DNA from: Gammaproteobacteria bacterium
Lineage (GTDB): Bacteria > Pseudomonadota > Gammaproteobacteria > DSM-26407
Direction of reading: 5' to 3'
Assembly: GCA_028694565.1 (NCBI GenBank)
Contig: JAQVKR010000030.1
Coordinates: forward strand, 1 to 12,114
Length of the DNA: 12,114 bases
The position numbers were made by a program, and so were the translations under genes. Every line of letters starts with the position of its first letter. Within the stretch, counting starts at the first letter, position 1. A model generated the notes under the pieces. It saw nothing but the letters and a program-made list of their open reading frames with translations. It did no database searches and was not told where the DNA came from. This document shows positions 1 through 12,114 of this stretch, piece by piece.

Positions 1-66
1 CGAGCAGGGAGCAGGGGCCCCGCGCAGCGGGGATGCGAGCGTCCGCGAGTCGCGGCCCGCCGGCCG
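1..66. repeat. 66-bp direct repeat, copy 1, with REP-like hairpins
   Basis: This stretch recurs at 115-180 with a single difference (G at 7, T at 121). It may extend left of the window. It contains a perfect 6-bp inverted repeat, CCCCGC-GCA-GCGGGG, at 18-32 and a second short one, CGCG-AGT-CGCG, at 44-54, so the transcript could fold into two adjacent hairpins. Paired GC-rich hairpins in an intergenic repeat resemble REP/BIME-type elements. That class assignment is inference, because only two copies are visible here. No reading frame with similarity to a known protein covers it. Confidence 0.85.
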
Positions 67-8492: not shown

Positions 8493-9095
8493 ATGGAGCA
8501 GGCGATCTTCTACTTCTTCTCCGCGGTGCTCATCTTCGCCGCCGGGATGGTGATCACGGCCCGCAACCCGGTGCACGCGGTGCTGTTCCTGGTGCTGGCC
8601 TTCTTCACCAGCGCGGCGCTGTGGCTGCTGCTGGAGGCGGAGTTCCTGGCCATCGTGCTGGTGCTGGTCTACGTGGGCGCGGTGATGGTGCTGTTCCTGT
8701 TCGTGGTGATGATGCTCGACATCAACCTGGCGCCGCTGCGGGAGGGCTTCGCCCGCTACCTCCCCGTCGGGGTGCTGGTGCTGGCGCTGGTGGTGCTGGA
8801 GATGGTGCTGGTGGTGGGGCCGCGCCTGTTCGGTGCGGAGGCGGTGACCGTCCCGGCCCGCCAGGCGGCGGAGTACAGCAATACCGAGACCCTCGGCGAG
8901 CTGCTCTACACCGTCTACGTCTATCCCTTCGAGGTGGCGTCGGTGATTCTGCTGGTGGCCATCGTGGCGGCCATCGCGCTGACCCTGCGCCGCCGGCCCG
9001 GCACCCTGAAGCAGGAGGTGGGCCGGCAGGTGGCGGCGAATCGCGGCGAGCGGGTGCGGCTGGTGCGCATGGCCGCCGAACGTTCGAAGCGCTGA
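8493..9095 (+). CDS. nuoJ: NADH-quinone oxidoreductase subunit J (NuoJ, ND6-like membrane subunit)
   Basis: NuoJ is a membrane-arm subunit next to NuoK and NuoA that takes part in coupling conformational change to proton transfer. The 200-residue product shows about five hydrophobic segments (near 3-21, 27-47, 52-75, 89-112 and 140-163). The third contains the conserved run VYVGAVMVLFLFVVMML, where the family has its characteristic pi-bulge helix. The last about 35 residues form a basic cytoplasmic tail. The start at 8493 is preceded by the purine-rich run GAGAGCGAGAGA. A 60-bp gap with a hairpin (9112-9127) separates it from nuoK. Confidence 0.96.
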   Translation: MEQAIFYFFSAVLIFAAGMVITARNPVHAVLFLVLAFFTSAALWLLLEAEFLAIVLVLVYVGAVMVLFLFVVMMLDINLAPLREGFARYLPVGVLVLALVVLEMVLVVGPRLFGAEAVTVPARQAAEYSNTETLGELLYTVYVYPFEVASVILLVAIVAAIALTLRRRPGTLKQEVGRQVAANRGERVRLVRMAAERSKR

Positions 9096-9155: not shown

Positions 9156-9461
9156 ATGATTCCGCTTTCCAACTACCTCGTCGTGGGGGCCGTGCTCTTC
9201 GGTCTGAGCATGGCGGGCATCGTGCTCAACCGCAAGAACATCATCGTGCTGCTGATGTGCGTGGAGCTGATGCTGCTGGCGGTGAACACCAACTTCATTG
9301 CCTTCTCCCGCTACCTCGGGGACACGGCGGGCCAGGTGTTCGTGTTCTTCATCCTCACGGTGGCGGCGGCCGAGGCGGCGATCGGCCTGGCCATCCTGGT
9401 GGTGCTGTTCCGCAACCGGCGCACCATCAACGTCGAGGATCTGGACGAGCTTAAGGGGTAG
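9156..9461 (+). CDS. nuoK: NADH-quinone oxidoreductase subunit K (NuoK, ND4L-like membrane subunit)
   Basis: NuoK is a small membrane-arm subunit with three helices, related to MrpC, that contributes to the proton path between the quinone module and the antiporter-like subunits. The 101-residue length is standard. Both conserved membrane glutamates are visible: Glu37 in [13 protein letters not shown] and Glu73 in [13 protein letters not shown]. The C-terminus [11 protein letters not shown] is typical. The gene ends in TAG, unlike the other complete genes here, which end in TGA. Only 9 bp separate the stop from the nuoL ATG, and nuoL is in the same reading frame. Confidence 0.97.
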
Positions 9462-9470
9462 GGGCAGGCC

Positions 9471-10742
9471 ATGGAGAACATCTATCTGACCATCGTCCTG
9501 GCGCCCCTGGCGGGCGCCCTCATCGCCGGGCTGTTCGGCCGCCATATCGGCCGTGCCGGCGCCCATGGCGTGACCATCCTCGGCGTGGCGGTCTCCACCG
9601 CGCTGTCGTTCCTGGTGTTCAAGCGCATCGTCATCGACGGCGCCGCGGTCGAGAACCTCAGCGTCTACACCTGGGCGGTCAGCGACGGGGTGCGGTTCGA
9701 GGTGGGCTTCCTGGTGGATTCCCTCACGGCGGTGATGATCTCGGTGGTCACCTTCGTGTCGCTGATGGTGCACATCTACACCATCGGCTACATGGCCGAC
9801 GACGAGCACAACTGGAAGGACGGCAGCCTCTCGGGCAACAACAGCTACCAGCGCTTCTTCAGCTACATCTCGCTGTTCACCTTCTCCATGCTCATGCTGG
9901 TGATGTCGAACAACTTCCTCCAGCTGTTCTTCGGCTGGGAGGCGGTGGGCCTGGTCTCCTACCTGCTCATCGGTTTCTGGTTCCAGCGCGACACGGCCAT
10001 CTACGCCAACCTGAAGGCGTTCCTGGTGAACCGCGTGGGCGACTTCGGCTTCCTGCTCGGCATCGCCGCGGTGCTCATGTACTTCAACAGCCTCGACTAC
10101 GCCGACGTGTTCGCCGCGGCTCCGCTGCTGAAGGACATGACCATCCAGATCCTGCCCGGCAGCGACTGGTCGCTGCTCTCCGTCATCGGCATCCTGCTGT
10201 TCATCGGCGCCATGGGCAAGTCGGCCCAGGTGCCCCTGCACGTGTGGCTGCCCGACTCCATGGAGGGCCCCACGCCCATCTCCGCGCTCATCCACGCGGC
10301 CACCATGGTGACCGCGGGCGTGTTCATGGTGGCGCGCATGTCGCCCCTGTACGAGCTCTCGGAGACGGCGCTGGGCTTCATCCTCGTCATCGGCGCCACC
10401 ACCGCCCTGTTCATGGGCCTGGTGGGCCTGGTGCAGAACGACATCAAGCGGGTGGTGGCCTACTCCACCCTGTCCCAGCTCGGCTACATGATGGTGGGCC
10501 TGGGCGCCTCGGCCTACGCCGCCGGCATCTTCCACCTCGCCACCCACGCCTTCTTCAAGGCGCTGCTGTTCCTGGCCGCGGGCTCGGTCATCATCGCCAT
10601 GCACCACGAGCAGGACATCCGCAAGATGGGCGGCCTCAAGAAGTACATGCCCATCACCTACTGGACCTCCCTGGTGGGGTCGCTGGCGCTCATCGGCTTC
10701 CCGGGCTTCGCCGGCTTCTACTCCAAGGACGCGGTCATCTAG
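9471..10742 (+). CDS. nuoL: NuoL N-terminal part as terminated by the amber stop (423 aa)
   Basis: If the TAG acts as a stop, this is the product. It contains the antiporter-type core, with key residues recognisable by motif: Glu157 (FGWEAVGL), Lys250 (GAMGKSAQ), Lys326 (QNDIKRVVAYSTLSQ), Lys363 (THAFFKALLFL) and Lys419 (FYSKD). The segment HVWLPDSMEGPTPISALIHA is typical of NuoL/MrpA. The stop falls only four residues after Lys419, so the last helices and the lateral helix would be missing. A truncated NuoL of this kind would not be expected to assemble into a fully pumping complex. The start at 9471 follows GGGGCAGG at 9462-9469. Confidence 0.8.
   Translation: MENIYLTIVLAPLAGALIAGLFGRHIGRAGAHGVTILGVAVSTALSFLVFKRIVIDGAAVENLSVYTWAVSDGVRFEVGFLVDSLTAVMISVVTFVSLMVHIYTIGYMADDEHNWKDGSLSGNNSYQRFFSYISLFTFSMLMLVMSNNFLQLFFGWEAVGLVSYLLIGFWFQRDTAIYANLKAFLVNRVGDFGFLLGIAAVLMYFNSLDYADVFAAAPLLKDMTIQILPGSDWSLLSVIGILLFIGAMGKSAQVPLHVWLPDSMEGPTPISALIHAATMVTAGVFMVARMSPLYELSETALGFILVIGATTALFMGLVGLVQNDIKRVVAYSTLSQLGYMMVGLGASAYAAGIFHLATHAFFKALLFLAAGSVIIAMHHEQDIRKMGGLKKYMPITYWTSLVGSLALIGFPGFAGFYSKDAVI
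10740..10742 (+). other. In-frame TAG within nuoL
   Basis: This TAG sits in the nuoL frame between GCGGTCATC and GCGGTGCACC. Family members usually read SKDAxIEA here, so GAG (Glu) is the likely ancestral codon and T at 10740 the altered base. The following codons GCG-GTG would allow reinitiation at GTG 10746 only with a poorly placed AAGGA (10725-10729). Confidence 0.9.
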
Positions 10743-10745
10743 GCG

Positions 10746-11459
10746 GTGCACCTGTCCCAGGTGCCGGGCTCCGGCTACGCCTACTTCTGCGTGCTGATCG
10801 GGGTGTTCGTCACCGCGCTCTACTCCTTCCGCATGTTCTTCCTGGTGTTCCACACCGAGGAGCGGATGGACGAGCACACCCGCTCCCACCTGCGCGAGTC
10901 GCCCTGGGTGGTGACCCTGCCGCTGGTGCTGCTGGCGATCCCGTCGGCCATCGCCGGATTCCTGTTCGAGGGGCCGATGCTGTTCCAGGGCCTGCTGGGC
11001 GGGGCGATCAGCGTGCTGCCCGGCCACGACGTGCTCGCGGAACTGGGCGCCGAGTACCACGGCCCGCTGGCGATGATGCTGCACGGTCTGCTGGCGCCGC
11101 CCTTCTGGCTGGCCGCCGCCGGCGTGGCCAGCGCCTGGTACGTCTACACCCGGCGGCCGGACATCGCCGAGAGCGTCCGCGCCCGGGTGCAGGGGCTCTA
11201 CACGCTGCTGGATCACAAGTACTACTTCGATGAATTCAACGACCGCGTGTTCGCCGGCGGCGGGCGCGGCCTCGGCCGCCTGTTCTGGCGGGCCGGTGAC
11301 GCGACGCTCATCGACGGCTGGCTGGTGAACGGCACCGCCAACACCGTCGGCCGCCTGGCCGGGGTGCTGCGCCGGGTGCAGTCGGGCTACCTCTACCACT
11401 ACGCCTTCGCCATGATCATCGGTCTGGTGGGGATGCTCAGCTGGGTGCTGTTCGGTTGA
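10746..11459 (+). CDS. nuoL: NuoL C-terminal part downstream of the amber stop
   Basis: From the first possible start (GTG, 10746) this frame gives 237 residues: the remainder of NuoL. It includes hydrophobic segments (for example YFCVLIGVFVTALYSF, WVVTLPLVLLAIPSAIAGF and PFWLAAAGVASAWYVYT). It also holds the conserved LLDHKYYFDEFNDRVF that begins the lateral amphipathic helix region, and a final membrane helix (YHYAFAMIIGLVGMLSWVLF). Codon choice is like its neighbours and there is no further lesion, so the fragment has not visibly decayed. Independent translation is doubtful because no well-spaced ribosome binding site precedes the GTG. Confidence 0.5.
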   Translation: MHLSQVPGSGYAYFCVLIGVFVTALYSFRMFFLVFHTEERMDEHTRSHLRESPWVVTLPLVLLAIPSAIAGFLFEGPMLFQGLLGGAISVLPGHDVLAELGAEYHGPLAMMLHGLLAPPFWLAAAGVASAWYVYTRRPDIAESVRARVQGLYTLLDHKYYFDEFNDRVFAGGGRGLGRLFWRAGDATLIDGWLVNGTANTVGRLAGVLRRVQSGYLYHYAFAMIIGLVGMLSWVLFG

Positions 11460-11530: not shown

Positions 11531-12114
11531 ATGACGGATCTACCGCTTCTGAGTCTGCTCGTCTGGGCGCCCGTGGTGGGCGGCGTACTGGTGCTGGCCA
11601 CCGGTGGCGACCGCAACGCGCTGGCGGCGCGAACCGTGGCCCTGCTGGCCGCGGTCGGCGTGCTGCTGCTGTGCGTACCCCTGTGGACCGGCTTCTCCAC
11701 CGGCACCGCCGAGATGCAGTTCGTGGAACGGCATGCCTGGATTCCCGCCTTCAGCGTGGAGTACTACCTGGGCGTGGACGGCATCTCCATGCCCCTCATC
11801 GTGCTCACCAGCTTCACCACCGTGCTGGTGGTCATCGCCGGCTGGGAGGTGATCCAGGAGCGGGTGGCCCAGTACCTCGCGGCCTTCCTGATCATGGAAG
11901 GGCTGATGAACGGCGTGTTCGCCGCCCTCGACGGCATCCTGTTCTACGTCTTCTGGGAGGCGATGCTGATCCCGATGTTCCTCATCATCGGCATCTGGGG
12001 CGGCCCGCGGCGCATCTACGCCACCATCAAGTTCTTCCTCTACACCTTCCTCGGATCGGTGTTCATGCTGGTGGCGCTGATCTACCTCTACCTGCAGTCC
12101 GGCAGCTTCGCCAT
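11531..12114 (+). CDS. nuoM: NADH-quinone oxidoreductase subunit M (NuoM, ND4-like), 5' part
   Basis: NuoM is the second antiporter-like proton-pumping subunit of the membrane arm. The window ends after 194 complete codons of what should be about 500, so this is a truncation by the window, not by the gene. The reading begins MTDLPLLSLLVWAPVVGG and is hydrophobic throughout. Family features are YYLGVDGISMPLIVLTSF (79-96) and FYVFWEAMLIPMFLIIGIW (138-156); Glu143 in the latter is the conserved membrane glutamate of the first half-channel. AAAGGA at 11517-11522, 8 nt before the ATG, supports the start. A 71-bp gap follows nuoL; nuoN is expected downstream. Confidence 0.96.
   Translation, partial: MTDLPLLSLLVWAPVVGGVLVLATGGDRNALAARTVALLAAVGVLLLCVPLWTGFSTGTAEMQFVERHAWIPAFSVEYYLGVDGISMPLIVLTSFTTVLVVIAGWEVIQERVAQYLAAFLIMEGLMNGVFAALDGILFYVFWEAMLIPMFLIIGIWGGPRRIYATIKFFLYTFLGSVFMLVALIYLYLQSGSFA

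What the first reader, a model, noticed from the sequence alone, without database searches (positions are those of the whole stretch)
10740..10742. Amber codon interrupts an otherwise perfect nuoL
The nuoL frame is intact and of normal total length, but codon 424 is TAG where relatives normally have Glu. The sequence downstream shows no frameshift, decay or altered codon use, so the change is recent, artefactual or tolerated. It falls just after the last conserved membrane lysine (Lys419) and would remove the final helices and lateral helix of a proton-pumping subunit. If real, it implies a damaged complex I, a two-piece NuoL, or amber suppression.
Basis: partly seen in the sequence, partly recalled or inferred. 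Interest (0 to 1): 0.72.

Follow-up and report, generated by a model that had tools for sequence, protein, structure and literature searches.

The report
Stray stop codon in nuoL
A respiratory-enzyme gene in a patchy draft genome of a sulfur bacterium carries one stop codon in its middle, most likely a sequence error or a very recent broken copy rather than a new way of reading genes.

Summary
In detail: nuoL (9471-11459, 662 codons) has TAG at codon 424 and no other break. Of 109 related loci none has a stop in its best-matching stretch; 94 of 108 readable ones have Glu there. The window is a whole contig of a draft genome in 511 contigs, 88% complete. The one congener returned, G001, whose protein equals the Thioalbus denitrificans NuoL record, is intact. 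The bin appears to mix haplotypes: another contig covers the last 497 bases of the window with 9 differences and equals G001 there. Sequence after the stop still looks constrained. Nothing found supports a programmed amber: release factor 1 is intact, PylS is below cut-off, no CUA tRNA was seen in an incomplete set, and TAG ends other genes, nuoK included. GAG to TAG is the commonest one-step nonsense change for this codon usage. I judge an artefact (base error or strain mosaic) most likely, a recent real nonsense mutation in one haplotype next. Without reads the two cannot be separated.

The parts
9471..11459 (+). nuoL frame, 662 codons plus TGA stop, interrupted once
   Evidence: NCBIfam NuoL models on both pieces
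10740..10742 (+). in-frame TAG, codon 424
   Evidence: Glu in 94 of 108 readable related loci
9471..10742 (+). proximal open frame, 423 aa, about TM1 to TM12 (helix count inferred from E. coli)
10746..11459 (+). distal open frame, 237 aa, first start codon a GTG at codon 426; TM13-16 and lateral helix (inferred)
   Evidence: AAGGA at 10725-10729 leaves 16 nt before the GTG, a poor ribosome-binding spacing (read)
9156..9461 (+). nuoK, itself ending in TAG, in the same frame as nuoL
11618..12114 (+). 5' part of nuoM, covered a second time by contig C263 with 9 differences in 497 bases, a sign of mixed haplotypes in the bin

Best explanation
The TAG is not a programmed element. It is a single-codon artefact in a draft, strain-mixed, metagenome-type assembly: a wrong or mosaic consensus base in an ordinary, functional nuoL. 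Shown: the stop is there, intact close relatives exist, the rest of the gene looks constrained, and the bin holds two versions of an overlapping stretch. Inferred: that the base itself is wrong, and that the genome is metagenome-derived (from its fragmentation and mixed haplotypes).
For: 511 contigs, 88% complete, 4.8% contamination. A second contig overlaps the window end with 9 differences in 497 bases, 7 of 9 synonymous, and is identical to G001 there. Two other mid-gene TAG stops, where G001 has CAG and GAG, turned up among 60 gene-to-contig comparisons (18,104 aligned residues), both within about 130 nt of contig ends; one lies among six differences in the first 78 nt of its contig, all transversions, three of them A>C. 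Only one NuoL, and no NqrA, was found in the bin. E. coli NuoL shortened by just 24 residues leaves about 7% quinone-reductase activity and very slow growth on malate (PMC3274701, passages read), so a strain with this stop would be expected to do badly. Two close relatives are intact: P0002, and P0186 from a metagenome, which shares some residues with this copy against P0002.
Against: The stop is 1.37 kb from the nearest contig end. Differences from G001 along the contig look like true divergence (omega 0 to 0.49 per gene). Difference density is not higher near contig ends overall: 75 of 2107 positions under 150 bp against 2622 of 56,310 beyond 500 bp. The reverse comparison also gave 4 in-frame stops and 2 frame changes in G001, not examined further, so an excess of stops in the draft is not shown statistically. 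Only 9 of 81 G000 sequences had an alignment over 500 bp to the G001 sample (64 kb). No read depth was available.
Confidence: 0.6

Rival explanations
1. A real, recent nonsense mutation in one haplotype of the population, giving a non-functional or crippled complex I in those cells.
For: The contig otherwise looks like a genuine diverged haplotype. GAG to TAG is the commonest one-step nonsense path. Omega after the stop is 0.33 against 0.15 before it.
Against: The residues at 493, 500, 511, 596 and 605, where this copy differs from G001 and P0186, all occur in other relatives. The distal part is also the faster one between this copy and P0003 (87% identity over the first 423 residues against 83% overall), so the omega difference needs no relaxation. 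nuoJ, nuoC and nuoG, with no stop, have omega 0.49, 0.23 and 0.22. It appears to be the only complex I in the bin, though the bin is incomplete.
Confidence: 0.33
2. The TAG is read through or suppressed, or NuoL is made in two pieces by restart at GTG 10746, so complex I works.
For: The distal frame is intact and NuoL-like. A GTG lies at codon 426. Two database fragments, P0233 and P0260, also start at the equivalent of codon 426.
Against: RF1 (prfA) intact. PylS only 22.2 bits against a cut-off of 178.15. No CUA anticodon on the 26 tRNA loci found in G000 or on 30 of 43 in G001. TAG ends 21 of 142 closed long frames in the G000 sample, or 18 of 139 without three broken or doubtful frames, and 63 of 409 in G001. 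nuoK ends in TAG. The 80 nt after the stop are not unusually structured (z -0.67). Ribosome-binding spacing is poor. Starts of the 120 best NuoL C-terminal fragments spread over residues 248-441, the lower bound being set by the search's length limit.
Confidence: 0.05

Closest known systems
NuoL / ND5, distal antiporter-like subunit of respiratory complex I (NCBIfam NF005141, TIGR01974)
   Same: Both pieces match NuoL models in order; Lys250, Lys363 and Lys419 present; operon order nuoB to nuoM (gene names nuoB to nuoK from reading the sequence, not from a family search)
   Different: One in-frame TAG at codon 424
NuoL of Thioalbus denitrificans (P0002)
   Same: 97% identical over 662 residues; the congener locus L008 translates to exactly this protein
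   Different: Intact at codon 424
E. coli C-terminally truncated NuoL mutants Y590St and K551fs (PMC3274701, passages read)
   Different: Those lose far less (24 residues, or half the lateral helix plus TM16) and are laboratory mutants
Amber recoding (pyrrolysine, natural amber suppressors; recalled)
   Same: An in-frame TAG with sense on both sides
   Different: PylS below cut-off, no CUA tRNA seen, RF1 present, TAG a normal terminator

Membership tests
NuoL (complex I) | Matches NuoL profile models over cut-off | tested here: met
   423-aa piece 632.5 bits against cut-off 556 for NF005141; distal piece 156.8 bits to the C-terminal part of that model
NuoL (complex I) | Conserved membrane lysines | tested here: met
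   K250 in 109 of 109, K363 in 109 of 109, K419 in 108 of 108 related loci, and all three here
NuoL (complex I) | Uninterrupted frame through the lateral helix and TM16 | tested here: not met
   TAG at codon 424
Pyrrolysine decoding | PylS present | tested here: not met
   best 22.2 bits, cut-off 178.15, in G000 and G001; the G000 draft is 88% complete
Amber suppression or reassignment | tRNA with CUA anticodon | tested here: inconclusive
   none on the 26 G000 tRNA loci or on 30 of 43 G001 loci; the G000 set is incomplete
Amber suppression or reassignment | Loss of RF1 or avoidance of TAG as a terminator | tested here: not met
   prfA 540.2 bits, cut-off 423.25, no stops inside; TAG ends 21 of 142 closed frames (18 of 139 without three broken or doubtful ones) against 63 of 409 in G001
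Natural two-piece NuoL | Split at the same site in relatives | tested here: not met
   0 of 109 related loci with a stop in the best-matching stretch, 95 of 109 stretches spanning nearly the whole protein; two of 120 C-terminal database fragments start at codon 426

The most novel reading that the evidence does not exclude
NuoL in this haplotype is made as two polypeptides that assemble into a working complex I, or the amber codon is decoded as an amino acid by an unseen suppressor tRNA.
Probability: 0.04. Interest if true: 0.7.

Novelty: not a real feature. Interest (0 to 1): 0.1.

Why it matters
A lone stop in a core gene of a composite draft genome is easily taken for recoding or for loss of respiration. 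Here the surrounding evidence points to neither. If the stop were real and tolerated, it would show that the distal proton-pumping subunit of complex I can be split or bypassed in nature.

Tried and rejected
Second NuoL: the other six hits in the bin are at most 35% identical. C209 carries frames like hydrogenase-4 subunits F (over cut-off) and B, C408 antiporter-like frames below cut-offs, and C263 NuoM and NuoN. In one search two of seven proteins (from L003 and L005) matched nothing because I had chosen wrong frames; one search repeated them in the right frame. NqrA: no match in G000 or G001. Type-2 NADH dehydrogenase was not tested: the accession I tried from memory was an unrelated shape protein, so that call says nothing. 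Rfam at gathering threshold on the window: no match. tRNA genes in the window: none. Plasmid collection: 57 records, none covering 80% of nuoL. Literature: 14 papers mention Thioalbus (listing and abstract starts); two searches on NuoL truncation and one on stop artefacts in metagenome assemblies, listings and abstract starts only. Of papers, passages of PMC3274701 and one passage of PMC4938563 were read.

Coding-on-both-sides scan: 5 of 123 tested stops were flagged in 393 kb of G000 (nuoL, the C19 frame, the nuoK/nuoL junction, and two that look like ordinary gene ends, viewed); 8 of 358 in 800 kb of G001 (one the nuoK/nuoL junction, four viewed and ordinary-looking, three not viewed).

In one search (579 G001 frames against 81 G000 sequences) four of the seven G000 stops lie within the first 17 residues of the query frame; I set them aside as probably upstream of the real start (inferred).

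Full report
What is there. The window is the whole of contig C80 of a draft genome, G000 (3.02 Mb in 511 contigs, 88% complete, 4.8% contamination). It carries nuoB to nuoL and the first 194 codons of nuoM (gene names of nuoB to nuoK from reading the sequence). nuoL runs 9471-11459, 662 codons, with one in-frame TAG at codon 424, 10740-10742.

Relatives. The one genome of the same genus that the search returned, G001, has nuoL intact, with 48 differences in 1989 bases. Its protein is identical to P0002, deposited as NuoL of Thioalbus denitrificans. A partial metagenome protein, P0186, 97% identical to this copy, is also intact. I scored 109 loci: 29 and 80; 108 are distinct. None has a stop in its best-matching stretch, and 95 of the 109 stretches span nearly the whole protein. 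Position 424 could be read in 108, of which 94 have Glu; Lys419 is Lys in 108 of 108.

Is the part after the stop decaying? There is no sign of it. There are no gaps in nuoL against G001; omega is 0.33 after the stop against 0.15 before it, and other genes of the operon range from 0 to 0.49. The distal part is also the faster one against P0003. The residues at 493, 500, 511, 596 and 605, where this copy departs from G001 and P0186, are all found in some other relatives. Any real mutation must be recent (inference).

State of the assembly. The last 497 bases of C80 are covered again by contig C263, with 9 differences, 7 of them synonymous; over that stretch C263 is identical to G001. Further in, C263 differs from G001 by 2-15 bases per 250. 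The bin therefore appears to hold more than one haplotype. I compared 81 G000 sequences (393 kb, window included) with 800 kb of G001; 9 of the 81 aligned over more than 500 bases, 64 kb in all. Of 60 gene-to-contig comparisons covering 18,104 residues, seven in-frame stops were found in G000. Four lie at the very start of the query frame. Three are mid-gene, all TAG: nuoL, a frame on C19 (L181) and a DsbA-like frame on C95 (L237; name from my reading of the sequence). The last two are within about 130 nt of contig ends. The first 78 nt of C95 show six differences, all transversions, a pattern I take as base error. Against this, difference density is not raised near contig ends in general, and the reverse comparison gave 4 stops and 2 frame changes in G001 that I did not pursue.

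Is TAG recoded? RF1 is intact and above cut-off. PylS is far below cut-off. The anticodons on the 26 tRNA loci found in G000 and on 30 of 43 in G001 include no CUA, but the G000 set is incomplete. TAG ends 21 of 142 closed long frames in the G000 sample; three of these are broken or doubtful frames (nuoL itself among them), leaving 18 of 139; in G001 it is 63 of 409. nuoK, whose stop lies nine bases before the nuoL start, ends in TAG in both genomes. With this codon usage 69% of one-step nonsense changes give TAG, and GAG to TAG is the commonest path, so three TAGs need no special cause. The 80 nt after the stop are not unusually structured.

Two pieces? A GTG at codon 426 could restart, but the ribosome-binding spacing is poor. 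Among the 120 best C-terminal fragments, starts spread over residues 248-441, the lower bound being set by the length limit of the search; two (P0233, P0260) start at the equivalent of codon 426. I see no sign of a conserved split.

Consequence if real. The stop would remove 239 residues, TM13-16 and the lateral helix (helix count inferred from PMC3274701). In E. coli, loss of only the last 24 residues leaves 7% quinone-reductase activity and very slow growth on malate (PMC3274701). No second NuoL and no NqrA were found in the bin; type-2 NADH dehydrogenase was not tested.

Verdict. I put 0.6 on artefact, 0.33 on a real recent nonsense in one haplotype, and 0.05 on a functional stop. These odds rest on judgement; reads would settle it.

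Noticed in passing
window 1-66 and 115-180: Two near-identical 66-bp direct repeats (98.5%) upstream of nuoB; related copies lie at G001 C7:75573-75896 (the matching place) and at G000 C411 and G001 C9.
   Followed up: partly
window 11618-12114 and G000:C263:6081-6577: Two contigs of one bin overlap in nuoM with 9 differences in 497 bases; C263 equals G001 there.
   Followed up: yes
L237 (G000:C95) position 47 and L181 (G000:C19) position 125: Other frames interrupted by TAG near contig ends where G001 has GAG and CAG; the C95 case sits in a cluster of transversions.
   Followed up: partly
proteins P0122 and P0004: Database NuoL proteins with an internal duplication of the middle part, possibly assembly artefacts.
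   Followed up: no
proteins P0233 and P0260: Separate NuoL C-terminal fragments that start at the equivalent of codon 426, P0233 from a 12.8-kb contig.
   Followed up: partly
window 8493-9095: nuoJ has the highest dN/dS of the operon against G001 (0.49).
   Followed up: no
G000:C209 (L002): Hydrogenase-4 subunit F-like frame of 689 aa whose match starts only at residue 237.
   Followed up: no
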